The notes below the pieces were generated by a model, which saw nothing but the letters and a program-made list of their open reading frames with translations, had not been told where the DNA came from and did not search any database. A stretch of DNA of 64,000 nucleotides from Streptomyces sp. MMBL 11-1 (GTDB taxonomy: Bacteria > Actinomycetota > Actinomycetes > Streptomycetales > Streptomycetaceae). The stretch covers positions 5,025,001 to 5,089,000 of the forward strand of contig NZ_CP117709.1 of NCBI RefSeq assembly GCF_028622875.1, given 5' to 3'. Below are positions 31,796-45,728 of the stretch, one piece after another (position 1 is the stretch's first letter; each line of letters opens with the position of its first letter). Position numbers and translations under genes: made by a program.

Positions 31796-31817
31796 CTACG
31801 CGCGTAGGCGCTAGAGT
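31796..31817 (+). promoter_or_regulatory. Adenosine deaminase promoter with operator, site 3
   Basis: CTACGCGCGTAG (31796-31807) is a perfect 12-bp palindrome. Five bases further TAGAGT (31812-31817) could be a -10 box six bases before the ATG, giving a leaderless transcript. A protein bound to the palindrome would block RNA polymerase. It matches sites upstream of the nucleoside importer genes. Confidence 0.55.
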
Positions 31818-31823: not shown

Positions 31824-33092
31824 ATGACGAGCCAGACCCCGAATGTCCCTGATTCCGACCAGATCCGGCGCGCCCCCAAGGTGCTGCTCCACGACCACCT
31901 CGACGGCGGCCTGCGGCCAGGCACCATCGTCGAGCTGGCCCGCGCGCAGGGTTACGACTCCCTCCCCGAGACCGACGCCGACAAGCTCGGCATCTGGTTC
32001 CGCGAGGCCGCCGACTCCGGTTCGCTGGAGCGCTACCTGGAGACGTTCGCCCACACCTGCGCCGTCATGCAGACCCGTGACGCGCTGTTCCGGGTGGCCG
32101 CCGAGTGCGCCGAGGACCTCGCCCAGGACGGCGTCGTCTACGCCGAGATCCGCTACGCCCCCGAGCAGCACCTGGAGGGCGGCCTGACCCTCGAAGAGGT
32201 CGTCGAGGCCGTCAACGAGGGCTTCCGCGAGGGCGAGCGCAACGCCCGCGCGAACGGCCACCGCATCCGCGTCGGCGCCCTCCTCACCGCGATGCGGCAC
32301 GCGGCCCGCGCACTGGAGATCGCCGAACTCGCCAACAGCTACCGCGACCAGGGCGTCGTCGGCTTCGACATCGCGGGCGCCGAGGCCGGGTTCCCGCCCA
32401 CCCGCCACCTCGACGCGTTCGAGTACCTCAAGCGCGAGAACAACCACTTCACGATCCACGCGGGCGAGGCCTTCGGACTGCCGTCGATCTGGCAGGCCCT
32501 CCAGTGGTGCGGCGCCGACCGCCTCGGGCACGGGGTGCGGATCATCGACGACATCGAGGTCGCCGAGGACGGCTCGGTCTCCCTCGGCCGCCTCGCCTCC
32601 TACGTACGGGACAAGCGCGTCCCGCTGGAGATGTGCCCGACCTCCAACCTCCAGACCGGCGCGGCCGCCTCGTACGCCGAGCACCCGATCGGACTGCTGC
32701 GCAGGCTGCACTTCCGGGTCACCGTGAACACGGACAACCGGCTGATGAGCGGCACGAGCATGAGCGGGGAATTCGAGCGGCTGACCGAGGCCTTCGGATA
32801 CACGCTCGACGACATGCAGTGGTTCACCGTCAACACGGAACAGACAGGTTCGCATTGGTCTGGCTGGCCTAGCCAGGCAGCTCATACGACGGACCTGCTG
32901 CATCACTCCACGCAGACGGGGGGACGGTCACCGTGTACCGAAACCCCGCGAGGAGAACCATGGCGAAGAAGAGGGCCGCCAAACTGCACCCGCTCAGGGC
33001 CCTACGACGCGTTTTCATTTACATCCGCGTCAGCATGGAACGCGACATCATGTTCTCGGACAAGTCGCAGCTCGACCATGGAACAGCCGTAG
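31824..33092 (+). CDS. add: Adenosine deaminase, 3' end replaced by prophage
   Basis: Residues 1-337 are a normal adenosine deaminase: HDHLDGG (metal His pair), [23 protein letters not shown] and NTDNRLMSG are all present. At QWFTVN (codon ends 32834) homology stops. The family usually continues with NAMKSAF and about 50 further residues. Here an 85-residue phage-encoded tail follows, ending at TGA 33090-33092 inside the integrase gene. All metal and catalytic motifs are retained, but the C-terminal helices are lost, so activity is uncertain. Excision would restore the gene. Confidence 0.85.
32825..32885. other. Attachment site junction (one att hybrid site)
   Basis: Homology to adenosine deaminase ends at about 32834 (TTCACCGTCAAC). 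The following phage side has an imperfect palindrome, CTGGCT-GGCCT-AGCCAG, near 32860-32876, the kind of inverted arm found in serine-integrase att sites. The crossover dinucleotide cannot be fixed without the other junction. Confidence 0.65.
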
Positions 33093-34633
33093 CCGACCGA
33101 CTTGGCTGCGAAGTCGTGGAAGTCATCTATGACATCGACGAGACCGGTACAACCTTCGATAACCGTCCCATCATCGACCTCATCGAGCGCGTAGGCCACG
33201 ATGAGGCGGACGGAATCATTGTCCTCCACACCAACCGGTGGGGGCGCAACTCCGAAGAATCCCAGGCGCACGAGCGACTCCTGCGCCAAGTCGGCGGCGT
33301 ACTCATCGCCGGTGGCCAGATCATCGACACCACCACCGCCGCAGGCCGAATGGCCTTTCAGTTCTCCACCGCAGTGGATGAGAACCAGTCCATCGTCATC
33401 GGGGAAAACTGGCGACGCGCCCACGAGAACCGCTACAAGCGCAAGCTCCCGCATCACGGCAAGCCGAACTTCGGCTACAAACGCTGCCCGGACTGCAAGC
33501 GCAACCCCGTCAACATGCGGTCGTACATCTACTGCACGACGTGCCACGGCGTTTTCCAGCCGAACGAGGACGACGAGTACAGCAAGTTCAAGGCACTCGC
33601 CGACGCGGTACGTCGGTACGTCTACGACGACGACAACTTCGAGACCATCGCCAAGGATGCAGCAGCAAGAGGCATCCGTTCCAACCCCTCGAAGAAATAC
33701 CCTAACGGCTGCCGAATGAGCGCAACCTCCTGGCGCAACGTCCTGGACACGGGGTTCTGGGCAGGTCTTCTTCGCATCGATGTGGACCACGAGAACCCGG
33801 GCCCGTGGAACTGGGAAGAGTGGCCGGCAGGCTTGCACAAGCCCATCGTGAATGACGACTTGGCCACCTGGAAGCTCTACGTAGCAAAAAGAGAGGCGCA
33901 GGCGGACCCGAACCGTCGCCAGCAGAAGCCAAAGTATTTTTGCTCGACAATGATCCGTTGCTACGGAAAGCGCGAGAACGGGGAAACATGCCTGGCGTCC
34001 ATGTCGGCAGGATGGGCAAACGGGTTCCCCCGATTCAACTGTCCCGTGCGAACCAAGCTGGGTAAGGACGCGTGCGAGGGCACCGCTGTCCGACTGCGGG
34101 TCACCGAGCGCACGTTCCTCAAGTGGGTTGACGCCAACGCAAAAGGCGAAGAGGAAGGCGCTCGGGCATTCGAGCGGGCCGCGAGTGCGACGGACCAGAC
34201 GAAACTACTCCTGCAACTTGAGAAACAGAAGGCAGACTTGGAGCGCAGACTAGACGCGGTCGCGGATCTCGTGCTCGACGAGGTGATCACCAGAGAGGCC
34301 GGCAAGCGCAAGACGGCTGAGCATAAGAGTGACCTTGCGATCCTGAAGAAGCGCATCAGCATCGTCTCGGCCTCCGTGCGGCGCTCGACGCCCCCGCCGG
34401 CCGAAGCCTTCGGTAGGTTCCAAAAGATTTGGTCGGAAATGCTTCCAGAGAAGCAGCGGAAGGCCATGCAGCAGGTTGTTGACCACATCGCCGTCTACCC
34501 GCGTCCCGAGGGCGCACGCGAATGCGTGCTGAAGATCGTGCCAGCTTGGGCTCCGCTGGAGCAGCAGATCAAGCGGAGGAACGATTGGGACCGGCTGAGT
34601 AGCGAGCGCGCAGAACTCGGCAAGGCCGCCTAG
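32960..34633 (+). CDS. int: Large serine recombinase (phage integrase)
   Basis: 557 residues from ATG 32960 with GAGGAG upstream. The resolvase domain has FIYIRVS with catalytic Ser25 and the [17 protein letters not shown] active-site segment. A recombinase domain follows (KPNFGYK to FWAGLL), with an inserted CPDC...CTTC ribbon near residues 173-195. Then come the canonical zinc ribbon (FCSTMIRC...C...C, about 330-365) and a coiled coil (about 410-490). It catalyses attP x attB integration and, with a directionality factor, excision. Position beside the junction fits integration into the adenosine deaminase gene. Confidence 0.93.
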
Positions 34634-34770
34634 TCGGCGGCCTGCTTGGCGGCCTGCTTGGTCGCCCAGATACGGTAAGCCTCTTCGCCGATGATGCGCC
34701 AGAAGTCCGCCCAGCACTCCTCTTCGGAGCGGGGGTCGGAAGTACCCGGGGAACGGTCATACGTCAACAT
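34630..34770 (-). CDS. Small phage protein, convergent with integrase
   Basis: 46 residues from ATG 34770, chosen because GGGAGGG lies eight bases upstream; the frame is open to 34881. It is acidic in the middle (RSEEECWADFWRII) with a C-terminal AAKQAAD tail, and its stop overlaps the integrase stop. Small genes next to serine integrases can encode directionality factors or regulators, but nothing in the sequence shows this. Confidence 0.55.
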   Translation of the reverse strand: MLTYDRSPGTSDPRSEEECWADFWRIIGEEAYRIWATKQAAKQAAD

Positions 34771-34810
34771 GACGTCGACCCTCCCTGGGTATTTTCGTTT
34801 TTTCCAGCGA

Positions 34811-34828
34811 CCATACGAGTGACGCATT
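34811..34828 (-). promoter_or_regulatory. Phage 18-bp box, copy 1
   Basis: CCATACGAGTGACGCATT lies in the AT-rich gap between the divergent 46-residue gene and the lipoprotein gene. On the minus strand TTCACA (34834-34839) and TATGGT (34810-34815) flank it with an 18-base spacer. Similar boxes are at 54077-54094 and 58832-58849. Confidence 0.5.
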
Positions 34829-34864
34829 ATTTTTGTGAAATAGTGCCCCCAGGAGGTGAGCAAC

Positions 34865-35161
34865 GTGAACCGTCGAGTCAATCGAATGGTGGGAATCCTG
34901 CTGGGGGTGGTCGTGCTGGCGGCGTGCGGATCATCAGAGGAGGGTGTCGAGGACTTGGACAGGTCGAGCTACGAAGCTGGCTTCGAAGCACTGGGTGGTG
35001 CGTACCTGCCGCCCAGCGACGAGGATCGCGCCACCGTCGAGGCGCGGTGTGAAGAAATGTTCGGCGGCGTTCCAGACGCCGACGATTACGTGCGGCACGA
35101 CTGGGTCGCTGGTTGTGCCGACTTTGTGGAAAACAAGGACTCCCGGTTCTCGCCCAATTGA
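34865..35161 (+). CDS. Prophage lipoprotein
   Basis: 98 residues from GTG 34865 with AGGAGG eight bases upstream. The N-terminus is a lipoprotein signal with lipobox LAAC (Cys21). The mature part is short, acidic and holds two Cys residues (RCEEMFGG, AGCADFV). It lies next to the integrase and is followed by its own terminator, the usual position of lysogenic-conversion genes. It could act in superinfection exclusion at the membrane; this is inference from location and export only. Confidence 0.75.
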   Translation: MNRRVNRMVGILLGVVVLAACGSSEEGVEDLDRSSYEAGFEALGGAYLPPSDEDRATVEARCEEMFGGVPDADDYVRHDWVAGCADFVENKDSRFSPN

Positions 35162-35175
35162 ACAGTGAGACCGGG

Positions 35176-35210
35176 AAGGCCCCCTGATTCCTTCGGGAGG
35201 CGGGGGCCTT
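35176..35210 (+). terminator. Terminator after the lipoprotein gene
   Basis: AAGGCCCCC (35176-35184) pairs with GGGGGCCTT (35202-35210), 14 bases after the lipoprotein stop. Confidence 0.8.
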
Positions 35211-35259
35211 GTCAGTAGCGGCGCCTACGCTGTCCGCTACCCAGTAGGTGAGGGAGAAC

Positions 35260-35721
35260 ATGGCTGAACCGGGATTCGTGCTTCTCGGAAAGAACTGGAC
35301 CTTCGACACAGTGGCGGAAAAGGGGTGTCGAGTAGTCACTGAGCCCGACCATCAGGGCTGCTTCCTGGCCGTGGACAGCAGCGGCGTGCAGTGTGAGTTC
35401 ACCACCAACATGGTGCAGAACGCGCGGCGCCCGGAGTACCTCGTTGCGGCCCGCTTGGTGATCGACGGAGCCGAGTTGGGGGTTACCCATGAGGCAGCGG
35501 TGGCGTTCAGCTCGGCGGCCGACGCGGTGAACAAGTTGGACCCGAAGTCGAGTGAGATGTTCGCGGTGTGGGCGGCTGGGGATGTTGAGCCCTCCAAGGA
35601 GTCGGTCGAAGTGCTGACGCAGGGGACGCTGCCGCAGCAGGTGCATGTCTACGCTGGGGGCCGACTGTGGCTGCTGGACGACATGCACGTGGGCGACACA
35701 CGGGGGGACTGCCGTGGCTGA
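35260..35721 (+). CDS. Phage protein of unknown function
   Basis: 153 residues from ATG 35260, preceded by GAGGGAG. It is a compact mixed alpha/beta sequence without membrane segments or recognised motifs. It starts the rightward small-gene block and overlaps the following mini-gene by 8 bases. No function can be proposed. Confidence 0.65.
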   Translation: MAEPGFVLLGKNWTFDTVAEKGCRVVTEPDHQGCFLAVDSSGVQCEFTTNMVQNARRPEYLVAARLVIDGAELGVTHEAAVAFSSAADAVNKLDPKSSEMFAVWAAGDVEPSKESVEVLTQGTLPQQVHVYAGGRLWLLDDMHVGDTRGDCRG

Positions 35722-35785
35722 ACTCCGAGACAGCCGTGAGAGCGCCGAGGTGGAGAAGCTGAGCGCGCGGGACAAGGTGGGGTAA
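35714..35785 (+). CDS. Possible 23-residue leader-like peptide
   Basis: GTG 35714 overlaps the previous stop, and TAA 35783-35785 overlaps the next ATG (TAATG). The highly charged sequence MAELRDSRESAEVEKLSARD is helix-forming. The perfect coupling to both neighbours supports translation, at least as a coupling device. It could also be only a spacer. Confidence 0.35.
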   Translation: MAELRDSRESAEVEKLSARDKVG

Positions 35786-36093
35786 TGAACAAGATTGCGT
35801 GGGGACCGGCGCCGGCCCGTGACCGGAAGGTCGGGCTGGTGGGGAAGAGGCGGCTATTCCTGGTGGCGCCCGGCAACAAACTGGGCGATGAGCCTGGTGA
35901 TTTCAGGCTTTACCTCTACTTCCCCGCCGACTCGATCCCTGTGGGTGGGGATGGCCTGCGGGTGCGTTCCGAGGCGGCGGCTATGGAACTGGCGGAGGAG
36001 TTGCTGAGGGACTTCTACCGTGAGATGAAGCGCCACATGGAGCCGGCCAAGCCGAGGAAGGCGACCGCCGCCAAGGAGGCTGGAAGTGGCTGA
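35785..36093 (+). CDS. Phage protein of unknown function
   Basis: 102 residues from ATG 35785. It has an N-terminal beta-type region (FLVAPGNKLGDEPGDFRLYL), a helix (AAAMELAEELLRDFYREMKR) and a basic Lys/Ala-rich tail, which might contact nucleic acid. It is translationally coupled on both sides. No family recognised. Confidence 0.6.
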   Translation: MNKIAWGPAPARDRKVGLVGKRRLFLVAPGNKLGDEPGDFRLYLYFPADSIPVGGDGLRVRSEAAAMELAEELLRDFYREMKRHMEPAKPRKATAAKEAGSG

Positions 36094-36334
36094 CGGGCTG
36101 CCGGACTTCGAGGTCGTGACGACGGAGGACGTCACCCCGGAGATCATCACGTTGATCAAAAGTCTCGTCACGAGCCACTACGAGGACGAGCCCATCGACT
36201 GGGAAGACATCTGGGATCGGGCCGAGAAGAGGCGGCTCGACGACGGGCGAGGCATCGACATGGGCACGGATCTGGGGTCGCCGGCCATCGTGCAGATCAA
36301 GAAGGAGATCAGGACATGGCGGAGGACGGGGTGA
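36086..36334 (+). CDS. Small acidic phage protein
   Basis: 82 residues from GTG 36086, overlapping both neighbours (8 and 19 bases). The sequence is rich in Asp/Glu and Trp (EDEPIDWEDIWDRAEKRRLD) and predicted largely helical. No family recognised. Confidence 0.6.
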   Translation: MADGLPDFEVVTTEDVTPEIITLIKSLVTSHYEDEPIDWEDIWDRAEKRRLDDGRGIDMGTDLGSPAIVQIKKEIRTWRRTG

Positions 36335-37152
36335 GGGGGAGCGACAGGCCCCTGCGGGTGCCGCTCGTGGTACAGGTGGACTTGCCGCACCCGGAGCAGT
36401 GGACGACGACGTTCGGCGTCAGCGGGCGGTCGGAGATCGCCACGGACGTGGGGAACTACGTCCAGACCGAGTTGCTGCCGAACTCAGTCTTCGGCAACGG
36501 AGAGGTGTCGGCGGACTTCAAGCTGGAGAAGGTTCCCTTCGTCCAGAAAGCCCTGGCGCACCACTTCTTCCCGGACAAGGACTTCTCGACGACGCCGACG
36601 GTGACGGTGTTCCTGCACCTGGTGGTCACGCTGCTGCGTCCCTCGGAATGGACGCGAGCACACGGCGAGGATGTGCGGGCTGAGATCGCTGATGCGGTGC
36701 GGGCCCACGTGGCTGAGACTCTCGTGCCGGCCGGTGTCTTCTCGTCGGGGGGCGTCGAGGCGGTGATCGTGCTGCGGGACACGCCTTTCGTGAGGAAGGT
36801 GCTGTCCTGGCGGGAGTGGCCGGATGGCATTCTGCACGTGCGGATGCCGGCCGAGTTCCGGGAGTACACCCGGCTGCGCCTGCGGAGCGACCTGTTGGCG
36901 CGTCTCAAGGAGAGGGCGGGGTTGGAGGTTCCCGCGCCGCAGATTGTCGAGCTGGCGCACCTGGTGGGCGAGGCTCTGCGGCGGGAGATCCGGGACGTGG
37001 ACCCGGAGCTGCGTTGGCACAAGGAGAAGGGTGTGCTGTCGGCGGCCGACGAGCCGGAGCTGACCGACGCCGAGGCCGTGGCGCGGTTGTGGGACCAGGT
37101 GATCGATCGGTATGTGGACACGGCGGTCAAGGCCCTGGCCAGTCGTGCGTAA
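36316..37152 (+). CDS. Phage protein with internal duplication
   Basis: 278 residues. The first 150 hold two related units: LVVQVDLPHPEQWTTTFG to PFVQK and LVVTLLRPSEWTRAHG to PFVRK share the order of a hydrophobic strand, a PxEWT turn, an E-I-A-D/A helix, the LxPxxVFxxGxVxA segment and PFV(Q/R)K. A C-terminal helical part follows. It looks like a gene that arose by domain duplication. The function is unknown. It is the last gene before a terminator. Confidence 0.65.
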   Translation: MAEDGVRGSDRPLRVPLVVQVDLPHPEQWTTTFGVSGRSEIATDVGNYVQTELLPNSVFGNGEVSADFKLEKVPFVQKALAHHFFPDKDFSTTPTVTVFLHLVVTLLRPSEWTRAHGEDVRAEIADAVRAHVAETLVPAGVFSSGGVEAVIVLRDTPFVRKVLSWREWPDGILHVRMPAEFREYTRLRLRSDLLARLKERAGLEVPAPQIVELAHLVGEALRREIRDVDPELRWHKEKGVLSAADEPELTDAEAVARLWDQVIDRYVDTAVKALASRA

Positions 37153-37171
37153 GTAATCAGGTGGCTCGCTG

Positions 37172-37205
37172 AAGCCCCTCGTTCCTTTGGGAGCGGGGGG
37201 CTTTT
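37172..37205 (+). terminator. Terminator of the rightward small-gene operon
   Basis: AAGCCCC and GGGGCTT pair across a 16-20 base loop and are followed by TTTT, about 20 bases after the preceding stop. Confidence 0.75.
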
Positions 37206-37232
37206 GCGTGCCCGGAACAGAAGGAGGGCGGC

Positions 37233-37631
37233 ATGGCCGCAGAAGAGGTGAAGAGAGTCGCGCACGGGGACCTCGGCTTCGCGACGTGTCTGCCGGACAC
37301 GCGGTGGGACGCGAACGAGTTCGTTCAGAGCGCGGGGCACGCCTTGGTTGGGCTGGTTCCGCTGCGGTTCTGGGAGCTGCGGGAGAAAACCTTCGAGGAG
37401 CTGCTGCCGATGGCGCTCGGTGCCAGTCGGATCATCGGTGAGAAGGGGGACATCTTCCAGTTCCACAAGGGCCAGCAGAGGAAGGGCTGGCGACCGAGTG
37501 GGGTGTTGGCCGAGCTGGTCACCGCGTACGCAGTCCTGGCGCTGAACACCCCGGATACGGGCGTGACGCGCTTCGCGTTCCACGCCTGCTTTTGGGTGCA
37601 CGAGGGATGCCCGAAGAACGCTGACGGCTGA
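37233..37631 (+). CDS. Phage protein of unknown function
   Basis: 132 residues from ATG 37233 with AGGAGGG upstream. It is soluble, with Trp- and His-rich stretches (GDIFQFHKGQQRKGWRP, FAFHACFWVHEG) but no recognisable domain. It is flanked by terminators on both sides, so it is a single-gene unit. Confidence 0.6.
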   Translation: MAAEEVKRVAHGDLGFATCLPDTRWDANEFVQSAGHALVGLVPLRFWELREKTFEELLPMALGASRIIGEKGDIFQFHKGQQRKGWRPSGVLAELVTAYAVLALNTPDTGVTRFAFHACFWVHEGCPKNADG

Positions 37632-37649
37632 CCTCGGCCCGCTCATCAT

Positions 37650-37675
37650 GCCCCTGCCCAATTTCGGGTGGGGGC
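37650..37675 (+). terminator. Hairpin terminator
   Basis: GCCCCTGCCC and GGGTGGGGGC pair around AATTTC shortly after the stop at 37631, with one mismatch. Confidence 0.65.
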
Positions 37676-37698
37676 TTCGCCATGTCTGGAGGTACGTG

Positions 37699-37848
37699 AT
37701 GGAGTTGATGGCGTGGCTCTTTGAGACGCGGCTGCGTTCGGTCGGTGTCACGAGTGCGCTTACGGTCGCGGGGTTCGCCATGGTGGCCTGGCTGGGGCGG
37801 GAGCCTCGACCGCCGCGAGGGCAGCATCGGCGTGGCCGGCCGAGGTGA
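37699..37848 (+). CDS. Small single-TM phage protein
   Basis: 49 residues from ATG 37699 with GGAGG upstream (spacing 6). One hydrophobic segment (VGVTSALTVAGFAMVAWLG) is followed by a Pro/Arg-rich cytoplasmic tail. Size and topology would fit a holin-like or membrane-sensing peptide, but this is not demonstrated. Confidence 0.5.
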   Translation: MELMAWLFETRLRSVGVTSALTVAGFAMVAWLGREPRPPRGQHRRGRPR

Positions 37849-37870
37849 CAGGGTCTCTTCGAATGTGTTC

Positions 37871-37896
37871 GATGCGGTCGCAGGTGCGACCGCATC
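37871..37896. promoter_or_regulatory. Perfect 12-bp inverted repeat, candidate phage operator
   Basis: GATGCGGTCGCA and TGCGACCGCATC are separated by only two bases (GG). They lie 34 bases upstream of the gene at 37930, whose Shine-Dalgarno GGAGGGAGG is downstream of the repeat. The tight spacing is more typical of a dimer-binding site than of a terminator loop. Confidence 0.5.
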
Positions 37897-37929
37897 GTGC
37901 CAGTCTGTGCAGGCGGAGGGAGGCCGTTT

Positions 37930-38157
37930 ATGGCGAAGTGGGAGCCGTCGGTGGAGGTGCTTGCGATGCTGCCGTGCCCCTGGGCGGAACTGTCTGAGGC
38001 GGAGCGGGCGTTCGTGGAGGCGGTGTGCGCTCCTGGCGGGCTGGGGGGTGTGCTCGCGGCGGCGGCCGAGTCGATGGAGGGCGCAGTTCCTCCCGGGGAG
38101 GGCTCGGAGGGAGCTACTCCTTCCGGATTGGCTCCTCGACGACTTCCGCGTCCATGA
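37930..38157 (+). CDS. Small phage protein
   Basis: 75 residues from ATG 37930. The N-terminal half is helical (EVLAMLPCPWAELSEAERAF) and the C-terminal half is low-complexity Gly/Pro/Ser. Its 3' end overlaps the end of the leftward gene by 44 bases. The operator-like repeat just upstream hints at regulated expression. Confidence 0.5.
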   Translation: MAKWEPSVEVLAMLPCPWAELSEAERAFVEAVCAPGGLGGVLAAAAESMEGAVPPGEGSEGATPSGLAPRRLPRP

Positions 38158-39613
38158 TGCCCATTTGATCGAAGGCGGTTTCGGCTGACACTGTCCCGGC
38201 GGGGGAGAGGGCGGGGGGCCCCTCGGACTTTGGTCCGAAGAGGCGGCTGATCAGGCCGACCTCGGCGGTCCCCTTGCTCTCCATCCGCATGCTGAAGGTG
38301 AAGCCCGCCTCTTCGATCTCGGCCTTGATTTTGACGTACTTTGCGAGGCGGTCCATCTCTGCGGACAGGTTCGGGTCGGCGTACCCGCCTTCTACCTCCT
38401 CGGACATGCGCATGGAGAAGACTCGCATCGCTTGCATGGTGATCATCGAGTCGAGCAGTGCGATGTACTGCTCCTTGGTCTTCACCCTGATGGGCATTTC
38501 GTACGCGCAGGATTCCCCGGGCTGGTATTCGGGGCACTTCTTGGCGAGGAAGCATCCGTCGCAGGTGCGCACATTGGCGTCCACGACGTTGATGCGGCGC
38601 TCGGTGCGCTGTTTCCTTTCTCCGGTCTCAGGGTCGTTGTAGCGGTGGGTGAACTCCTCGGTCTCGATGCCTGGCAGGAGTTTCTTCACCCTTTCAGAGG
38701 AGGGCCGAGTTGCCCCCTCGTTCCCGAGGTTTTCAGACTTCACCGCAACTGTCCCTGGCGGGTTTTCCGCGTTTGCGGGTTCACCCGTTTCCGCCGTGCC
38801 AGTTACTCCCTTTCCGTGGCGCTGCGTAATGTGGTCGATCTGGTGGCGCCACGACCACAGAGAGAGGCGCAGGTTTTCGGAGGCGTCGTCCGCGTCGATG
38901 AGATCAGTATCGAATCCGGCGCCGGCGATGAGGGTGCGGTGCCGCTTGCGTGCCTGCCCTTTGTAGCGGGCAGGGTATCGCTTCATTTCGGTGCCAGCCC
39001 AGATGAACGTCTCTCCGTGCTGGGCGGCCGACAGCCACGTGGTGGAGGAGACGGAGTACCAGTCGGCGCTCAGCATGAGTGGTGGGGACGAGAAGCCCAT
39101 GCCGTGGAGCCTGACCGTGCGGCTGATTGTGCGGAGCAGGGGGATGATGTCCCGGTCGCCGCAGGTGCCTTGGCCGACAGCGATGTAGGGGTACTGGTCG
39201 GCCATCCGTTTGAGAGTGTCCACACCCCATTCTTCGTGCCAGACGACGATGGCCTTTTCCGGGTCGAGGTGTTGCCGGCGGGCCTCGATCCAGTCGCGTC
39301 CCATGGTGAGGGCGTCGAACTCGACGTATGCCTGGATACGGTCGACGTTCTCCTCTACGAACTGGTCGTAGTGGTCGGCGATGGCCTGAATTTCCTCGGT
39401 GGTCACCTCGACCCCGGGCCGGTTCAGCGTGTGGCAGCCACTGTCCAGGAAGACTGACTGCTCCGGGGGGTAGTGGGCTTCTACTGTCCAGGGCTTGGAG
39501 AACTTCACGCGTCGGCGGAGCCCCATGTAGGACAAGCCGACGTGGGACACGTGCTGCTCGGCGCACAGGGTGCGGTGGGAGGGGATCTCGGTCCCGGCGT
39601 AATAGAAGATCAC
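38114..39613 (-). CDS. TGT-like TIM-barrel protein with Cys-rich C-terminal domain
   Basis: 499 residues. The first 240 look like a tRNA-guanine transglycosylase-type barrel: VFLDSGCHTL (where DpdA/TGT have the catalytic DSG), VEFDALTMGRDW, IAVGQGT, RLHGMG and WYSVSSTTWLSAAQHGE. In phages such barrels (DpdA) insert 7-deazaguanines into DNA. No preQ0 synthesis gene is in the window. After a linker comes CDGCFLAKKCPEYQPGESCA, probably zinc-binding, and a helical tail. The barrel assignment is from pattern recognition only and the fusion is unusual. Confidence 0.5.
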   Translation of the reverse strand: MIFYYAGTEIPSHRTLCAEQHVSHVGLSYMGLRRRVKFSKPWTVEAHYPPEQSVFLDSGCHTLNRPGVEVTTEEIQAIADHYDQFVEENVDRIQAYVEFDALTMGRDWIEARRQHLDPEKAIVVWHEEWGVDTLKRMADQYPYIAVGQGTCGDRDIIPLLRTISRTVRLHGMGFSSPPLMLSADWYSVSSTTWLSAAQHGETFIWAGTEMKRYPARYKGQARKRHRTLIAGAGFDTDLIDADDASENLRLSLWSWRHQIDHITQRHGKGVTGTAETGEPANAENPPGTVAVKSENLGNEGATRPSSERVKKLLPGIETEEFTHRYNDPETGERKQRTERRINVVDANVRTCDGCFLAKKCPEYQPGESCAYEMPIRVKTKEQYIALLDSMITMQAMRVFSMRMSEEVEGGYADPNLSAEMDRLAKYVKIKAEIEEAGFTFSMRMESKGTAEVGLISRLFGPKSEGPPALSPAGTVSAETAFDQMGIMDAEVVEEPIRKE

Positions 39614-39807
39614 CTGGTGTCCTCGAAGACCGCGTCGATGAAGGTGGTTCGCCGGAAGCGGGGGTTGTCTCGGGCGAAGAGGCCGGCGAGACCGTCGGCG
39701 ATTTCGCGGACCGTCTTGGTGCGGGTGGGCTGCCGCTTGCCCTCGGGGGGCAGAGCGGACCGCAGAACGGCGGCTGCCTCGCGGTAGTGCTTCCTGGACA
39801 TGGTCAT
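39610..39807 (-). CDS. Small phage protein
   Basis: 65 residues from ATG 39807 (a second ATG at 39801). It is basic, with a TREIADGLAGLF-like helix. The start overlaps the upstream stop (ATGA) and the stop overlaps the next start. No family recognised. Confidence 0.6.
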   Translation of the reverse strand: MTMSRKHYREAAAVLRSALPPEGKRQPTRTKTVREIADGLAGLFARDNPRFRRTTFIDAVFEDTR

Positions 39808-40052
39808 GTGACGTCGTCGATCAGGGTGACCACCGTGGCGCCGTTGTGCCCGTGGATCGTCAGGACGTCGTCGATGGAGCCGTAGACGGCTGTGGAGGAG
39901 AGGCCGGTCATCCAGCGCATGGCCACGGTCCCGTCGTGAAAAATGACGCCGGCCGCGACGGTGCCGGTCCCCGAGACGCCGGTGGCGTCTTCGTGGCGGT
40001 CGAGGTGGAACCGACGCAGGGGGGTGTCGCTGAGGACGAGGTTCTCGTTCAT
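39804..40052 (-). CDS. Small phage protein, related in layout to its neighbour
   Basis: 82 residues from ATG 40052 with GGAGG seven bases upstream. The beta-rich pattern GVIFHDGTVAMRWM, then DVLTIHGHNG, resembles GVVWGDRTAAIRRI, then DIDYALDTHC, in the gene just upstream. The two may be distant paralogues of a small beta domain. Function unknown. Confidence 0.6.
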   Translation of the reverse strand: MNENLVLSDTPLRRFHLDRHEDATGVSGTGTVAAGVIFHDGTVAMRWMTGLSSTAVYGSIDDVLTIHGHNGATVVTLIDDVT

Positions 40053-40315
40053 GCCGTTACCTCCGCCGTGTAGGCCGTGGTGCTCAGGGGGTCTTCGCCA
40101 AGGGCGGGTTCCGGGTCGCCGAGGGCGTGGAAGTGGATGTCCGTGCCCGGTGGGCAGTGGGTGTCGAGGGCGTAGTCGATGTCGTCCCACGTGGTGTCGC
40201 CCGGGTCGTCGCCGATGCGCCTGATCGCTGCGGTCCGGTCGCCCCAGACGACTCCGTGGGCGACGGGCTCGGGACCTTCGGCGAGCGTGAATCTGGTGTA
40301 CGGGGTCAGGGTCAC
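40049..40315 (-). CDS. Small phage protein
   Basis: 88 residues from GTG 40315 with AGGAG five bases upstream. It overlaps both neighbours by 4 bases. It shares the G-V-V/I-x-x-D-x-T-x-A-x-R strand pattern with the following gene. Function unknown. Confidence 0.6.
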   Translation of the reverse strand: MTLTPYTRFTLAEGPEPVAHGVVWGDRTAAIRRIGDDPGDTTWDDIDYALDTHCPPGTDIHFHALGDPEPALGEDPLSTTAYTAEVTA

Positions 40316-40782
40316 GGCTGCTCCTGGGTGCGTTGGTCTGTCATGCGGAGCGCGGCCTGGTGCTCGATGGCGTCGGCGAGCTGGTCCCAGGGGCGGGGGG
40401 CGCCGGTGTAGTCGGGGCGCCAGCGGGGCTGGGTGTAGGCCGCGTGCGTGATGAGCGCGGAGTTCCATCCGGCTGCCAGCTCTGCGGCGGCGCAGGAGGG
40501 GTCCGGTTCGAGGACCAGGCCGATGCGCCAGCTTCGGACGCGTTCCAGAACTTCGAGGCGGCCGGCGGGGCCGGGCTCGGGTTGGTGGAGGTAGCCGAGG
40601 TGGCCGGTGAGGCTGCGCTTGGCGAGCCAAAGGGTGCTGTCCTGCTCGGTCCAAGTGTGGGAGAGCAGGTACAGGCGGGAGTTCTTGGCGAGGGCTTGGT
40701 AGAGACCCCAGCCGGTGTCGAAGTGGCCTTCGCCGTTGGGTGTGCGCAGGATGCCTTCGACGACCATGACTGCGGCGAGCAC
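40312..40782 (-). CDS. Phage protein, possibly HAD-like
   Basis: 156 residues from GTG 40782 (ATG 40767 is an alternative). The pattern VVEGILRTPNGEG near the start, LYLLSHTWTEQD in the middle and GLVLEPDP then WNSALITHAAYTQP later recalls a reduced HAD-type Rossmann fold, but the catalytic DxD is absent. Conserved Trp and Pro-rich segments suggest a structured protein. The function is not assignable. Confidence 0.5.
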   Translation of the reverse strand: MLAAVMVVEGILRTPNGEGHFDTGWGLYQALAKNSRLYLLSHTWTEQDSTLWLAKRSLTGHLGYLHQPEPGPAGRLEVLERVRSWRIGLVLEPDPSCAAAELAAGWNSALITHAAYTQPRWRPDYTGAPRPWDQLADAIEHQAALRMTDQRTQEQP

Positions 40783-40793
40783 GGTGTGGGGCC

Positions 40794-41072
40794 TTACAGC
40801 TTGAGCTGGCCGGCGAGGGCTTCGTGGGCGGCGGCCTGCTGCATCTGGGTCGTCATCGCCATGAGCTGGTGGGCTGTGATGGCGGACTGCTTGCTGGCCT
40901 CGATGTCGGAAACGACTTCGCTCGCGCCGAACTTCATCTCGATGACCGTGGCCGGGTGCTCGGCCTCGACGGGCTTGCTGAGGTCGGTGAGGGCCTCCCA
41001 CTCGCCGTTGGTGTGCTGGACGACCATGAATGCCGTACGGACCTGGAGGGGTGCGGGGGTTTCGAGAGGCAT
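40794..41072 (-). CDS. Phage protein of unknown function
   Basis: 92 residues from ATG 41072 with AGGAG seven bases upstream. The N-terminal part is beta-type (TAFMVVQHTNGEWEALTD), and a long C-terminal helix rich in Gln/Ala/Met may oligomerise. No family recognised. Confidence 0.6.
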   Translation of the reverse strand: MPLETPAPLQVRTAFMVVQHTNGEWEALTDLSKPVEAEHPATVIEMKFGASEVVSDIEASKQSAITAHQLMAMTTQMQQAAAHEALAGQLKL

Positions 41073-41082
41073 TGCGGGACTC

Positions 41083-41562
41083 CTAGTCGATTTCGTAGCC
41101 GTCTTCTTTTTCCGCGCGTTTCGCTATTCGCCGCTCGCGGTCGCGAGCACGGACGCAGGTGACGCATTCGCGTCGGCCTGAGTGCCACCGAATGTTTTCT
41201 TCGGTGTACTCGTGGCCTTTGGGGCAGTGTGTTTTGCGGGCGTTTCGCGCGGAGAATGATTCGCCGCGCTCGACGTTCTCGGCGGCGGGTACGGGTTCAA
41301 GGTGGTCGGCGTTGCAGCAGGACCGGATTCGGCAGAGGTGGTCTACGTGCCATCCCGGGGGTACCGTTCTTTGGTTTGCCAGTTCCCAGGCGATGATGTG
41401 GGTGCCCTTGGTGCGGCCGTTGGGGAGGCGGAATTTCCCGTAGCCGTAGTCGTCCTTGGCGCCGAGCCAGATGTGGCAGTCGTCGAATTCTGTTCCCTTG
41501 TCGACCTTGTCGAAGAACCGCTTGGTCCAGTCGTCAGGGTTACGGCGGCGCTGCGCTTTCAC
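41083..41562 (-). CDS. HNH endonuclease
   Basis: 159 residues from GTG 41562, overlapping the upstream stop. The HNH core is GWHVDHLCRIRSCCNADHLEP, preceded by CHIWLGAKDDYGYGKF. A zinc-binding tail follows (HCPKGHEYTEEN and CVTCVRARDRER). Free-standing HNH enzymes of this type occur in many actinophages, as homing nucleases or as packaging or defence helpers. No terminase gene is adjacent here, so the role stays open. Confidence 0.85.
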   Translation of the reverse strand: MKAQRRRNPDDWTKRFFDKVDKGTEFDDCHIWLGAKDDYGYGKFRLPNGRTKGTHIIAWELANQRTVPPGWHVDHLCRIRSCCNADHLEPVPAAENVERGESFSARNARKTHCPKGHEYTEENIRWHSGRRECVTCVRARDRERRIAKRAEKEDGYEID

Positions 41563-42074
41563 TTGTAGAGCCCGAGCTTGTGCCGCACCTTCTGCTCGTT
41601 GACGGAGCGGATAGGGCAGTAGTCGCAGAGGTAGCGCTGGCCGGCGGGGTTGTGCTTGTCCCACTTCGGCAGGCCCTCGGCCTTGCGGTCGGCAGCGGTG
41701 GGGGGCGCGAGCCGCTTCTTCTCCGAATGGAAATCGGAGCAGGTCTCGGGTCGGTTCCGGCTGCGCCAGCACTGCATGGCGTCGTCCTTGAGTGTGTCGA
41801 CCGCCTGGTAGACCCAGGGCTCCATTCCGGTCGCGCCCTCCTCCTGCCAGACGCGGCGGAGAATCTCTTCACGGGCGCTGCTGTCGGAATGCCAGCGGTC
41901 CTCGTCTACGCCTTCTACGGGGTAGAGCCGGCCGAAGTGTCGCTCACCATTCGGGTACTGGTGCTTGGCTGCCGCGTATTCGAGGACCGTGTCTCTGCGC
42001 GGGTCTCCCTGATAGGCGGGGAGGACTTCTGTGGACTTGCAGTCCTTGCAGAGGAGTAGGCGAATCTGGGTCAT
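41559..42074 (-). CDS. Phage protein with two zinc-finger-like Cys pairs
   Basis: 171 residues from ATG 42074. CKDC near the N-terminus and CDYC near the C-terminus, plus TCSDFH in the middle, suggest metal binding. The middle part is helical and acidic. It is encoded just upstream of the HNH gene with a 4-base overlap, so the two may work together. No family recognised. Confidence 0.6.
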   Translation of the reverse strand: MTQIRLLLCKDCKSTEVLPAYQGDPRRDTVLEYAAAKHQYPNGERHFGRLYPVEGVDEDRWHSDSSAREEILRRVWQEEGATGMEPWVYQAVDTLKDDAMQCWRSRNRPETCSDFHSEKKRLAPPTAADRKAEGLPKWDKHNPAGQRYLCDYCPIRSVNEQKVRHKLGLYK

Positions 42075-42083
42075 GTCTGGACG

Positions 42084-42794
42084 CTAATACCACCGATTTT
42101 TCTGCCAGAAATTCCAGGCTCCGCAGGGGCTTCCGTAGCGGTTGGAGATATAGCTCAGACCCCAGCGAATCTGGGTGACCGGGTTGGTTCGCCAGTCGGC
42201 GCCGGCCGAGGACATCTTGGAGGCGGGGAGGGCCTGCATCAGTCCGTATGCGCCGGAGGACGGGTTGGTCGCGCGGTGGTTCCATCCGCTTTCGCGGTGG
42301 ATGAGGCTGTCCAGGCACGAATACTGGGTGCTGGAAAGTCGGGCGCGGGCGTAGGACCGGGCGCCGGAGACGCTGGGGGTCTCCATGGTGCGGGTGGCGG
42401 AGCGGGCGGCTCGCTGCTGGGTGTGTTCGCGGGCGGCCTGGGTTTGGCGCTCGGCGCGGGCCGCGCGGCGAGCTGCGACTGCTGCCTCGGCCTGTCGTCG
42501 CGCTTCGGCTTCGGCCTTGCGCTTCGCGGCGGCTGCTGCCTCGGCCTTGCGGTGCGCGGCGGCCTGCGCGGCGGCTTGGGCCTGGAGCGCGCCGACGGTG
42601 GCGTTGTGGCCGTCGTCCAGGGCGCGGTCGATGTGGAGCGTGGGCAGCGGGAGGGCTGACGTCCGGGCCGGCTTGTCGGGCTTGGCGTCGGCGGGGTAGG
42701 TCAGCAGGGCTGCGGTCAGGAGTGCCACGAGGGCGGCTGCTGCGGTGATGCGGCAGGTGCGCCAGGAAACGTGGGGGAGCTTGGGGCGGGACAC
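42084..42794 (-). CDS. Secreted transglycosylase-like protein
   Basis: 236 residues from GTG 42794. The N-terminal signal (ITAAAALVALLTAALLTYPADA) is followed by an 80-residue Ala/Lys/Arg-rich coiled coil and a C-terminal transglycosylase fold (CLDSLIHRESGWNHRATNPS, then SGAYGLMQALP). Glu in HRESGW is the expected catalytic acid. The domain resembles host resuscitation or lysozyme-like proteins of streptomycetes. In the lysis region it may assist peptidoglycan degradation from outside the membrane. Confidence 0.82.
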   Translation of the reverse strand: MSRPKLPHVSWRTCRITAAAALVALLTAALLTYPADAKPDKPARTSALPLPTLHIDRALDDGHNATVGALQAQAAAQAAAHRKAEAAAAAKRKAEAEARRQAEAAVAARRAARAERQTQAAREHTQQRAARSATRTMETPSVSGARSYARARLSSTQYSCLDSLIHRESGWNHRATNPSSGAYGLMQALPASKMSSAGADWRTNPVTQIRWGLSYISNRYGSPCGAWNFWQKNRWY

Positions 42795-42887
42795 AGAGGG
42801 CCTTTCACAGGGGATGTGACCCCGGCTCTCCCGCAGGCAGTCCGGCGTCGGTCACCCTAGGGGCCGCAGAATTGTGTCGGGTAGCCG

Positions 42888-43160
42888 CTAAACGGGGGGC
42901 TGTCCGATCGGGGTGGTGGGTCGGGCGGGGTAGGCGGGCGGCTTGGCCAGGCCCAGGAACCAGCCGAAGGCGGGGCTTACCTTGGCTTCCAGGAGGCGGA
43001 AGAGGCCGTAGTAGAGCACGCCGAAGATGCCGACGAGGGCCTGCGAGAGCGCCACTTCATCGACGTCGACATAGATGTGCGCGAGGAGCGCCGCGACCCA
43101 CCCGACGACGATGGGGACGGCGGTCCGCCACAGTGAGACGACTACGTCGTAGACGGTCAT
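42888..43160 (-). CDS. Holin
   Basis: 90 residues with two hydrophobic segments (AVPIVVGWVAALLAHIYV and ALVGIFGVLYYGLFRLL) and a Pro-rich C-terminus. It lies two bases downstream of the amidase gene. Size, topology and place next to the endolysin are the evidence. It would make membrane lesions that let the amidase reach the wall at the end of infection. Confidence 0.75.
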   Translation of the reverse strand: MTVYDVVVSLWRTAVPIVVGWVAALLAHIYVDVDEVALSQALVGIFGVLYYGLFRLLEAKVSPAFGWFLGLAKPPAYPARPTTPIGQPPV

Positions 43161-43162
43161 GC

Positions 43163-43903
43163 CTACCCTGCTTTCTTTTCCAGGGCGACGATGCGTGCGC
43201 CCTGCGCTTTGACGAGTTTTTCAAGGGCGGCGACCCTCGTCTCGATGGTGGACACGGGGGGCGGCGTGGGCGTCGTGGGGTTCCAGCTCGCCGAGTGCTT
43301 GAGCCGCTCGGCGATGCGGTCGCGGATGGAGGGCATGGTGAAACCCCGGGGGTCGACCTTGTCGCTGGACCATTCGGCGTGGCCGATGGTCGACTTGGCG
43401 CTCCATCCGTGTGCGCGGCAGATGGCTGCGGAGGCGCGGACGATGGCCTCGATCTGCTTCGCGGGCCACGGGTCCTTTCCGTCGCCGAGGTTTTCGCATT
43501 CGAAACCGTAGAACCGCGCATTGCCGTCCACGCCGGTCTTGTTGCCCTTGGTGGGCTTCGTCGGCGCGGTTCCGTAGTTCTCCGCGATGACCTGGTTGAG
43601 GACGGTGCCGTCGCCGCCGCCGGCGTGGTTGGCTCGGCCCAGGCCGACGAGGTAGACCACGCCGTCCTTGCCGATGACGCCGTGGCACAGTGGGCCGGGC
43701 AGTCCCGAGTAGCCGGTGCGGCAGATGTTGACCGTGTTCTGCGTGCCCTTGGTGACGGTGTGGTGGATGAGGACGCCGTTGACCGGCCCCCACTTTCCGA
43801 CGGAGTTGCGGTTGTGCGTGCGCCAGGAGCCGACTTCGACGACGGTGACTCCTTCGGCACGTAGTGCCGCTACAAGAGGGTTGGCGGTGAGGGGAGTTGC
43901 CAC
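43163..43903 (-). CDS. N-acetylmuramoyl-L-alanine amidase (PGRP endolysin)
   Basis: 246 residues from GTG 43903, with GGAGGTGA upstream. The PGRP/amidase-2 fold shows zinc ligands in VLIHHTVTKGT and in IGHAEWSSDKVDPRG, and the ANHAGGGDG loop. A short coiled coil (ETRVAALEKLVKAQGARIVA) closes the protein and may multimerise it. No signal peptide is present, so release depends on the holin encoded next. It cleaves the amide bond between MurNAc and the stem peptide. Confidence 0.9.
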   Translation of the reverse strand: MATPLTANPLVAALRAEGVTVVEVGSWRTHNRNSVGKWGPVNGVLIHHTVTKGTQNTVNICRTGYSGLPGPLCHGVIGKDGVVYLVGLGRANHAGGGDGTVLNQVIAENYGTAPTKPTKGNKTGVDGNARFYGFECENLGDGKDPWPAKQIEAIVRASAAICRAHGWSAKSTIGHAEWSSDKVDPRGFTMPSIRDRIAERLKHSASWNPTTPTPPPVSTIETRVAALEKLVKAQGARIVALEKKAG

Positions 43904-44208
43904 TACTTCACCTCCGGCCAGGCCCACTGGCCTACGTCGTCGCCTTCGAGGCGGGAGGTGGCCCAGTAGGTGTCGTTTCCGTCCAGATGGACGGCCAGGT
44001 TGACGGCGGGGGGTTCGTGGTCCCAGACGCGGACGACGACAGCCGGGTAGACGGCGCCTTCGACTGCTTCGTTGCCGACGTGGGCGATGAACCCGGTGCG
44101 CGTCGACTTGGCGCTCGTTGCGTAGTCGTTTCGGCGCTGGTTGATGACCTGTGCGTCGTGGTCGCTGAGCCGGTAGAGGACGGTGCGGCCAGGGGTGGGT
44201 GAGGGCAC
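43903..44208 (-). CDS. Phage protein, possibly virion-associated
   Basis: 101 residues from GTG 44208 with AGGAGG nine bases upstream. The pattern GRTVLYRLSDHDAQVINQRR, then AVVVRVWDHEPPAVNLAVHL and GNDTYWATSRLEGD, is common in small actinophage proteins encoded near the tail-fibre and lysis genes. It overlaps the amidase start by one base. The structural role is an inference from location. Confidence 0.6.
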   Translation of the reverse strand: MPSPTPGRTVLYRLSDHDAQVINQRRNDYATSAKSTRTGFIAHVGNEAVEGAVYPAVVVRVWDHEPPAVNLAVHLDGNDTYWATSRLEGDDVGQWAWPEVK

Positions 44209-44222
44209 TGTCTTCTGCCTCC

Positions 44223-45728
44223 TTACGTGGCGGGGGTGGTGCCGGTGACGGCCGGGGAGGACTTGGAGCCTTCGCCGGTGCCGTTCACGGCGGCGACCTG
44301 GATGGAGTACGCGGTTTCCGCGCTGTATCCGGTCAGGTTGGTGGTGGCGGCGGGTGCGGTGACCGTCGCCTTGACGGTCGAGCCGTCGTAGACCTTGTAG
44401 GAGGTCACGGGGGGGTTTGCACCGGCGGGTGCGGCCCAGTTGACCGTCATGCCGGTGGTGGTGACGTTCGTGACGGCGACTGCGGTGGGTGCGCCCGGGA
44501 CGGCCGGGGTGGGCACGGTGCCCGTGAGAGCGCTGGAGGGGGCGCTGACGCCGGAGCTGTTGCCTGCGGCGACGGTGAAGGAGTAGGTCTGCGCGGCGGT
44601 GTACTGGAGCGTGACGTGAGGGGCCGCGCCGAGGGGGGAGTTGACCACGGCGACCTGGCGGGTGCCGTCGTAGACCGCGTAATACTCCGGTGCCCCGTTG
44701 GACCCGTTGATCGTCGGGGGGCTGATGGTGAGCTGCACCTGGCCGCCGACGACCGGGGACACGGTCAGGCTCGGGGCGCCGGGCGTACCGGGGGCGACGG
44801 TGGAGGCCGGCAGAGCGCCGCGCAGGGGCGGGGAGAACTCGCTGTAGGCGGTGCCGTAGGAGTTGGTGCGTACTGCGCGGACCTTCAGCGCGAACCGTCG
44901 TCGGGGTGTCGTGTAGGCGGGTGTGGTGAAGGTGACAGTGGGGGTGCCGGCCGAGGGCTGGTTGACTTCGCCGAGCTTGACGTCTCGGCTGCTGAGTCCG
45001 GGGCGGGAGGAGTCCATGCCGTCGGTGGTCCCCGGGGTGGGGTTGTCGAAGATTTCGTACTTGGTGACGTTGGGGACTGTCGTCCAGCGGAGCTGGATTC
45101 CGCCGCCGCCCGCTGTGGTGATGACCGGTAGCGGGGCGGCGAAGTCGAGGTCGTTGGGCGGACGGGGCGGGAGCGTGAGCTGCTGGCGGTCGTACCCGAC
45201 GGCGGGCGTGGTGACGGTCAGTTCATCGCTCTCCGGTCCGAACTCGCCCGCCTGGTTGTGTGCGGCGACGGTGACGGTGTACGCGGTCTCCGGCTCGATG
45301 GGGGTCCACACCGGGTCCTCGGGGTCGCTCTTGTCCCAGAACCCGCTGATGGTGGCCGAGGACTCCCCGCCGGGCTGGTGCACTTCTCCGGTGGTGTTGA
45401 TGGTGACGCGGTGCCCGGCCACGCCGACGCCCTGGAGGCCGGTGACGCCCATGTAGTAGCTGTCGTCGAGGTCGGCGGCCATGTCGCCTACGTTGGAGCG
45501 CCAGAACAGCAGGAACTGGTGCGGCTCGTTGACGCCGAGGGAGTGGGGTTCGCCGGCCTTGTCGAGGTACCACAGGGGCTTGGGCGGGACGACCTGCTCT
45601 CCGTAGTCGGAGGGCCGGTCGGCGAGGTGCTGGGCTGCGGTGCGGGGCTGGTTGACCAGGCCGACCGGGGTGCCGGGCTCGGCTGTGAGGTCGCTGGTGG
45701 TGTTGAGGTTCCATCGCTCGTTCGCCAT
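44223..45728 (-). CDS. Fibronectin type III repeat phage protein
   Basis: 501 residues from ATG 45728. The C-terminal half has two or three FN3 modules (PGAPTAVAVTNVTTTGMTVN, then SYKVYDGSTVKATV and the ETAYSIQVAAVNGTGEGS strand). Earlier segments with AYTVTVAAHNQAGEFG and KYEIFDNPTP suggest further beta modules. FN3 proteins decorate phage tails or capsids and can bind surface polysaccharides. Place between membrane and lysis genes suits a minor tail or receptor-binding protein. The N-terminal 150 residues are unassigned. Confidence 0.75.
   Translation of the reverse strand: MANERWNLNTTSDLTAEPGTPVGLVNQPRTAAQHLADRPSDYGEQVVPPKPLWYLDKAGEPHSLGVNEPHQFLLFWRSNVGDMAADLDDSYYMGVTGLQGVGVAGHRVTINTTGEVHQPGGESSATISGFWDKSDPEDPVWTPIEPETAYTVTVAAHNQAGEFGPESDELTVTTPAVGYDRQQLTLPPRPPNDLDFAAPLPVITTAGGGGIQLRWTTVPNVTKYEIFDNPTPGTTDGMDSSRPGLSSRDVKLGEVNQPSAGTPTVTFTTPAYTTPRRRFALKVRAVRTNSYGTAYSEFSPPLRGALPASTVAPGTPGAPSLTVSPVVGGQVQLTISPPTINGSNGAPEYYAVYDGTRQVAVVNSPLGAAPHVTLQYTAAQTYSFTVAAGNSSGVSAPSSALTGTVPTPAVPGAPTAVAVTNVTTTGMTVNWAAPAGANPPVTSYKVYDGSTVKATVTAPAATTNLTGYSAETAYSIQVAAVNGTGEGSKSSPAVTGTTPAT

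What the first reader, a model, noticed from the sequence alone, without database searches (positions are those of the whole stretch)
31824..33092. Prophage integrated inside the adenosine deaminase gene by a serine integrase
The host gene is intact up to codon 337 (QWFTVN) and then turns into phage sequence; a large serine recombinase gene begins 125 bases on. Characterised Streptomyces serine integrases that I know use other targets, so this attachment site may be undescribed. All catalytic motifs of the deaminase remain on the host side and an 85-residue phage tail is added, so lysogeny might modify the enzyme instead of abolishing it, and excision would restore it.
Basis: partly seen in the sequence, partly recalled or inferred. 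Interest (0 to 1): 0.8.

Follow-up and report, generated by a model that had tools for sequence, protein, structure and literature searches.

The report
Phage carrying spare adenosine deaminase gene
A large Streptomyces phage inserts its DNA into the bacterium's adenosine deaminase gene, cutting it in two, and carries its own complete spare copy of that gene, altered in the stretch where the phage's own insertion enzyme would be expected to cut.

Summary
The deaminase gene (ada) reads normally to codon 337, then crosses attL (core CGTCAA, window 32828-32833) into a 108.3-kb myovirus-like prophage whose large serine integrase starts at 32960. The missing 3' end lies at attR on the same contig; the joined empty site reads as normal ada.

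The main point lies outside the window: the prophage carries a complete second ada, 27-28 kb inside attR, on the opposite strand. A prophage of the same species (IMG/VR) has the same attR joint and spare gene. A third phage, with an integrase 31% identical, splits ada 105 bp upstream and also carries a spare. A fourth (CBMA29) uses that upstream site without a spare.

Copy B is host-like up to 25 nt left of the crossover, then phage-specific. The attB stretch averages 92% identity between hosts but only 64% between copy B and its host.

Best reading: the spare replaces the split gene and is altered so that the integrase spares it, a protein-gene counterpart of tRNA-dependent lysogeny. Replacement and avoidance are inferred. 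The 'modified enzyme' idea is not supported.

The parts
31796..31807 (+). 12-bp palindrome CTACGCGCGTAG upstream of host ada; kept unchanged before copy B and the IMG/VR phage copy, with one change before the G091 phage copy
   Evidence: present in 10 of 10 host genes printed (4 of 14 asked for gave no start)
31824..32833 (+). 5' part of the host adenosine deaminase gene (337 codons)
   Evidence: joined with the attR side it reads as a full ada
32828..32833 (.). attL core CGTCAA, shared with attR at genome C1:5166177-5166182 (outside the window)
32851..32859 (.). CGCATTGGT, one arm of the 9-bp inverted repeat of the rebuilt attP; the other arm ACCAATGCG is at attR
32834..33092 (+). phage-encoded 85-codon extension of the truncated ada frame, plus stop; overlaps the integrase gene start in another frame
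32960..34633 (+). large serine integrase, 557 aa
   Evidence: phrog_95 4.3e-51; Pfam Resolvase; homologues 92, 89 and 81% identical in the protein database
32834..64000 (.). the part of the 108.3-kb prophage that lies in the window. Outside it: complete spare ada (copy B) at genome C1:5138131-5139252, minus strand; attR at C1:5166177
38114..39613 (-). prophage gene, queuine tRNA-ribosyltransferase-like
   Evidence: phrog_887 6.7e-69
52995..54110 (-). prophage gene, UvsX-like recombinase
   Evidence: phrog_97 8.9e-49
55073..56953 (-). prophage gene, DNA polymerase
   Evidence: phrog_17 3.7e-123
58845..60428 (-). prophage gene, DNA helicase
   Evidence: phrog_62 1.6e-82
60428..61396 (-). prophage gene, DNA primase
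   Evidence: phrog_47 7.3e-36
61380..62612 (-). prophage gene, DnaB-like replicative helicase
   Evidence: phrog_19 1.6e-48

Best explanation
A temperate relative of the BRock-type Streptomyces myoviruses integrates, by a large serine integrase, into the chromosomal adenosine deaminase gene at the codons for VN|AMKSAF. The shared core is only 6 bp, so integration does not rebuild the gene. The phage instead carries a complete ada with the short conserved element upstream of it, which supplies the enzyme in the lysogen. The attB-equivalent stretch of that spare gene is changed, largely by synonymous substitutions, so that the integrase should not attack the phage's own copy, while the 5' part of the spare gene is repeatedly exchanged with host ada genes. 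Shown by sequence: the split gene and both joints, an intact spare gene in three prophages, the altered attB stretch, and the conflict between 5' and 3' trees. Inferred: expression, replacement, and avoidance by the integrase.
For: Intact copy B inside the element; it is the only intact gene of this type found in the genome, other matches being 30% identical. Same spare gene and same attR joint in a second prophage of the species. G091: another integrase (31% identical), another site in ada, spare gene at the corresponding place, about 30 kb from attR and opposite to host ada. dN/dS between copy B and the IMG/VR copy 0.013/0.197. attB stretch: 92.3% mean over 2850 host pairs, 64.0% for copy B against its host; lowest value 92% among 104 host pairs of similar body identity. 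Host-like to phage-like switch 25 nt left of the crossover centre in copy B. 5' tree rejects one phage clade (p-AU 6e-5); tail tree groups the phage copies (support 78, 140 columns). Upstream element kept.
Against: CBMA29 has a related prophage in ada and no second ada at E 1e-60, so a spare is not obligatory. Seven of 16 genomes examined show only a 63-71% paralogue as best full-length match (one of them 79% complete), so this ada may be dispensable. The predicted central AA is unchanged in the spare copies, and the core variant of the G091 copy (GTCAATAC) also occurs in 2 of 78 hosts. For the G091 copy the excess divergence at its own attB is modest (33 of 777 host pairs as low). Geography of recombination could leave the 3' end unlike hosts without selection. 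No expression, activity or integrase data.
Confidence: 0.7

Rival explanations
1. The phage ada is ordinary cargo serving lytic growth (purine salvage, or countering a nucleotide-based defence); its match with the integration target is coincidence or a by-product of capturing a gene that lies next to the prophage.
For: The spare gene lies among phage genes, 27-30 kb from attR, and keeps a lineage-specific 3' end. CBMA29 shows that insertion in ada can go without it.
Against: The three prophages found with ada all sit in ada. No second ada at 80% or more in the other 11 of 12 genomes with a related capsid (their insertion sites not mapped), none in 18 related IMG/VR records, many of them fragments, and no Streptomyces-named phage among the 10 of 50,697 phage records that match ada.
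Confidence: 0.18
2. The unlike 3' end of the spare gene is a matter of recombination geography, not of selection to escape the integrase: in a lysogen only the 5' part of host ada is a long uninterrupted partner for exchange.
For: Everything from the attB left edge to the stop is phage-like, not the attB alone; the body clearly recombines with hosts.
Against: In copy B and the IMG/VR copy the switch lies 25 nt before the crossover, at the expected edge of attB, not at the crossover where the host partner ends; the 3' stretch of the host gene at attR was also available as a partner.
Confidence: 0.3
3. One reading: the truncated gene with the 85-residue phage extension makes a working, modified deaminase.
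For: The frame is open and the listed active-site motifs lie on the host side (the catalytic roles are recalled).
Against: 47 codons are lost, including a motif that aligns with solved adenosine deaminases; the two related insertions break the frame right after VNTD; an intact copy is supplied.
Confidence: 0.06
4. Copy B is a host gene duplicate or an assembly artefact, not part of the phage.
For: Its body is up to 97.7% identical to chromosomal genes of other species.
Against: It lies between attL and attR, colinear with the same gene in an independent prophage and beside the same DUF7873 gene in G091; its tail groups with the other phage copies.
Confidence: 0.02

Closest known systems
tRNA-dependent lysogeny (Guerrero-Bustamante and Hatfull 2024, PMC10865867; abstract, passages and discussion read)
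   Same: The integrase splits a host gene, the shared core is too short to rebuild it, and the phage encodes a replacement of the split gene elsewhere in its genome.
   Different: There the gene is an essential tRNA and the enzyme a tyrosine integrase, with the requirement shown by experiment. Here the gene codes for an enzyme, the integrase is a serine integrase, the spare is altered over attB, and nothing has been tested at the bench.
BRock-type Streptomyces myoviruses (Borockvirus; PMC7453282, whole text read)
   Same: Major capsid protein 61-62% identical to BRock, LuckySocke, Alone3, pSt2308 and GiJojo; similar genome size; queuine tRNA-ribosyltransferase, exonuclease, DNA polymerase, helicase and primase genes in both.
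   Different: BRock is described as virulent with none of its genes predicted for lysogeny and with 29 tRNAs; this prophage has a serine integrase and ada, and ARAGORN finds no tRNA.
Helper-embedded PICI satellites (PMC10111431; passages read)
   Same: The authors suggest that a captured late gene gives a backup intact copy for an interrupted prophage gene.
   Different: There the split gene belongs to a helper prophage, not to core host metabolism.
Characterised Streptomyces serine-integrase systems (phiC31, R4, SV1, phiBT1, phiJoe, Samy; PMC12924846 and PMC5311408, passages read)
   Same: Serine integrase, short core, attB inside a conserved coding gene.
   Different: Their targets are other genes; the term adenosine deaminase does not occur in PMC12924846 nor deaminase in PMC5311408.

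Membership tests
Large-serine-integrase prophage | serine recombinase gene of about 500-600 aa with resolvase domain beside one att site | tested here: met
Large-serine-integrase prophage | attL and attR with a short common core that rejoin to an intact attB | tested here: met
   CGTCAA; joined ada frame normal
Large-serine-integrase prophage | phage structural and replication genes between the joints | tested here: met
Large-serine-integrase prophage | active integration and excision | not testable with these tools
   needs the strain; a homologue of the protein annotated RDF in BRock was not found
tRNA-dependent lysogeny | integration disrupts the host gene without rebuilding it | tested here: met
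   6-bp core, frame leaves ada at codon 337
tRNA-dependent lysogeny | phage encodes an intact replacement of the disrupted gene | tested here: met
   copy B intact, PF00962 profile 1-329 of 330
tRNA-dependent lysogeny | disrupted gene is a tRNA gene and the enzyme a tyrosine integrase | tested here: not met
   protein-coding gene, serine integrase: works like it by analogy, not filed as a member
tRNA-dependent lysogeny | replacement gene is required for lysogeny | not testable with these tools
   needs a deletion mutant; CBMA29 suggests it is not absolute
Adenosine deaminase family (PF00962) | full-length A_deaminase domain in the spare gene | tested here: met
   copy B 8.3e-106; G091 phage copy 6.1e-106, both profile 1-329 of 330
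BRock-type myovirus | homologous capsid and contractile-tail genes | tested here: met
   capsid 61-62%; tail tube and baseplate wedge matches

The most novel reading that the evidence does not exclude
A protein-coding counterpart of tRNA-dependent lysogeny: a phage lineage that keeps an integrase-proof replacement of a core metabolic gene, refreshes the rest of it from its hosts by recombination, and, because the gene is covered, can evolve or swap integrases that hit different points of that same gene (here two, 31% identical, 105 bp apart, both centred on the AA of a Val-Asn codon pair).
Probability: 0.5. Interest if true: 0.85.

Novelty: new variant of a known kind. Interest (0 to 1): 0.76.

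Why it matters
Integrating elements are known to limit damage by rebuilding the end of the target gene or by using dispensable sites (established knowledge). This phage appears instead to bring a whole replacement protein gene whose target stretch is disguised, which would explain how a phage can use a highly conserved coding sequence as attB. It gives a simple rule for finding further cases (a second copy of the split gene inside the element, altered at attB) and offers two attB sites in ada that could be tested as Streptomyces integration sites.

Tried and rejected
Led nowhere: an AlphaFold run on the chimera from a two-sequence alignment gave mean pLDDT 34.3 and says nothing. ARAGORN found no tRNA in the window or in the five neighbouring stretches; Rfam gave one tRNA-like match below threshold. 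Pattern scans for the integrase in viral contigs and genome contigs confirmed no relative, although the protein database holds homologues at 92, 89, 81 and 53%, so those scans are no evidence of rarity. A related integrase (53% to that of G091) in IMGVR_UViG_2751185739_000006 has no ada beside it in the 11.9 kb read. A second search for phage-borne ada returned only the IMG/VR record already known. A BRock protein annotated as RDF had no tblastn match here. Megablast of one 20-kb stretch against phages gave nothing; the integrase matched plasmids only at 29% over a third of its length. A Fisher test (p 0.011) used 10 other genomes; the proper count is 11, insertion sites there were not mapped, and two of the four positives are one phage species, so I do not rely on it.

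Considered and rejected: host duplication or assembly error as the source of copy B; a working chimera as the main explanation; the idea that the central dinucleotide is what is changed in the spare genes (the predicted AA is kept, the flanks differ).

Full report
Observation. The frame 31824-33092 is host ada up to codon 337 and phage sequence after it. The window is C1:5025001-5089000 of an 8.5-Mb genome in 5 contigs. The missing 3' end (VNAMKSAFIPFDERL...) begins at C1:5166177 on the same strand, 108,349 bp from the attL core. The shared core is CGTCAA. The attP rebuilt from the outer halves has a 9-bp inverted repeat, ACCAATGCG/CGCATTGGT, and its best symmetry centre is the AA of the core, with 13 of 22 arm positions paired. 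The joined empty site reads as a normal ada.

The element. My own gene finder called 123 genes between the joints. Thirty proteins were scanned against PHROGs, one of them copy B and one a 32-residue cut piece; matches include terminase, portal, major head protein, tail tube, baseplate wedge, DNA polymerase, primase and DnaB-like helicase. GC is 65.5% against 72% in the flanks. The capsid protein is 61-62% identical to those of BRock, LuckySocke, Alone3, pSt2308 and GiJojo. BRock is described as virulent, with no genes predicted for lysogeny (PMC7453282, whole text read), although its GenBank record names one protein an RDF (first 50 kb seen).

The spare gene. The ada product finds a second, complete ada at C1:5138131-5139252, minus strand; 947 of 1013 aligned nucleotides are identical (93%), and the similarity begins 29 bp before the start codon, at the palindrome CTACGCGCGTAG. 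The other three matches in the genome at E 0.001 are 30% identical.

Second case, same phage species. IMGVR_UViG_2934748790_000001 (108,057 bp) is colinear with our prophage, 88-95% identical in the main blocks, with one 358-nt block at 73% and some unaligned gaps. It contains the same attR joint with the host 3' end, ends 645 bp short of the integrase gene, and carries an ada whose product is 97-98% identical to that of copy B. Its host is not known to me.

Third and fourth cases, other integrases. Its integrase is 31% identical to ours. A complete ada lies inside it, about 30 kb from attR, opposite to host ada and beside the same DUF7873 gene. In Streptomyces sp. CBMA29 a related prophage of about 109.5 kb (capsid 80%), with an integrase 69% identical to that of G091, splits ada at the same place (core GTCAACAC); a genome search at E 1e-60 shows no second ada. 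The attP symmetry centre is again AA within GTCAAC in both. Of 392 genomes drawn from the genus, 4 hold a relative of our integrase at E 1e-60: our own, and three at 33-35%. Of these, our own and G091 have the gene beside a split ada; the regions around the other two show none (the one of G048 was read as G421, with the same coordinates). Split ada was not screened for directly in the 392, because the match list was capped.

The altered attB stretch. I aligned by codon 78 host ada genes (75 from fetched genomes, 3 joined empty sites) and 3 phage copies (start trimming failed for 13 rows, which were kept). The statistics use the 76 hosts with fewer than 30 gap positions. The 50 nt around our crossover average 92.3% identity over 2850 host pairs, the body 88.2%. 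Copy B against its host: body 95.3%, attB stretch 64.0%, tail 75.6%. IMG/VR copy against the same host gene: 97.2, 64.0 and 74.4%. Among 104 host pairs with body identity 93.5-96.5%, the bin that holds copy B, the lowest attB identity is 92%; among 124 pairs at 91.5-94.5% it is 86%; the IMG/VR value for the body lies above both bins. G091 phage copy against its host: body 87.9%, own attB stretch 75.0% (33 of 777 pairs with body 83-87% are as low), downstream stretch 74.0% (5 of 777), tail 70.7% (0 of 777); its body lies just above that bin. Against the host gene in L023, copy B has no difference over 110 nt and then 18 in 50 nt, starting 25 nt left of the AA. In the G091 copy the best identity to any host drops from 0.93 to 0.80 some 15-30 nt left of its own AA, less sharply. 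At our core, hosts have GTCAA in 77 of 78, copy B and the IMG/VR copy GTGAA; at the upstream core the G091 copy has GTCAATAC, which 2 of 78 hosts also have. The AA itself is kept, so avoidance would have to rest on the flanks.

Trees. The 5' tree scatters the phage copies among hosts (one clade rejected, p-AU 6e-5): copy B is nearest to L025, the IMG/VR copy to L029, the G091 copy to L257 and then its own host. The tail tree unites them with support 78, on 140 columns, which is weak. The simplest history is an old phage ada whose 5' part has been replaced from hosts more than once while the part over attB persisted. dN/dS between copy B and the IMG/VR copy is 0.013/0.197, as for a working gene.

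Controls. Of 13 loci found by capsid in genome contigs, 12 genomes were searched. Apart from CBMA29, none of the 11 shows a second ada at 80% identity or more: two have a 68-70% paralogue, one has no match and one a partial match. Their insertion sites were not mapped. None of 18 related IMG/VR records, many of them fragments, matches ada. Of 50,697 phage records 10 match, none named Streptomyces; two unverified faecal fragments match at 68-75% and were not followed beyond their empty annotation. Seven of the 16 genomes examined have only a 63-71% paralogue as their best full-length match, so this ada is probably not essential; that fits a fitness role better than an absolute need.

Literature. 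Closest is tRNA-dependent lysogeny (PMC10865867: abstract, passages, discussion read). PMC10111431 suggests a backup copy for an interrupted prophage gene (passages). The term adenosine deaminase is absent from the main text of PMC12924846, and deaminase from PMC5311408 and PMC10083194 (term searches and passages); supplements, where target lists may stand, could not be opened. Ten searches of the open-access library (listings seen) showed no report of this site or of a phage carrying an altered replacement of a split protein gene. Subscription papers are not covered.

Verdict. The idea of a modified enzyme gives way to a better one: the phage brings its own enzyme gene, with the target stretch changed. 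The anatomy is near certain (about 0.97); replacement is likely; avoidance by the integrase is plausible and directly testable.

Noticed in passing
L007:16179-17204 (+), genome C1:5124178-5125203: A tyrosine-integrase-like gene (phrog_216 1.4e-14; Pfam Phage_integrase 7.1e-08) lies next to the terminase gene in the middle of the prophage, with tblastn matches in G091 (67%) and CBMA29 (34%). Its role beside the serine integrase is unknown.
   Followed up: partly
L008:9819-9954 (+): A tRNA-like sequence stretched to 136 nt lies just downstream of the spare ada; Rfam tRNA score 24.8, below the gathering score of 29. ARAGORN reports no tRNA there.
   Followed up: partly
31796-31807: Palindrome CTACGCGCGTAG stands before ada in 10 of 10 host genes printed and may be an operator or part of the promoter.
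   Followed up: partly
L218:1-1875: A related serine integrase (53% to that of G091) lies beside the start of another host-like gene, by eye ADP-ribosylglycohydrolase-like (not tested), so this integrase group seems to use several conserved genes.
   Followed up: no
G285 C1:3112565-3113679 and G375 C1:4614870-4615982: In these two genomes ada is split into overlapping pieces in different frames without a large insertion: frameshift mutations or sequencing errors.
   Followed up: no
38114-39613: The prophage and BRock both carry a queuine tRNA-ribosyltransferase-like gene, perhaps for modification of phage DNA; not examined.
   Followed up: no
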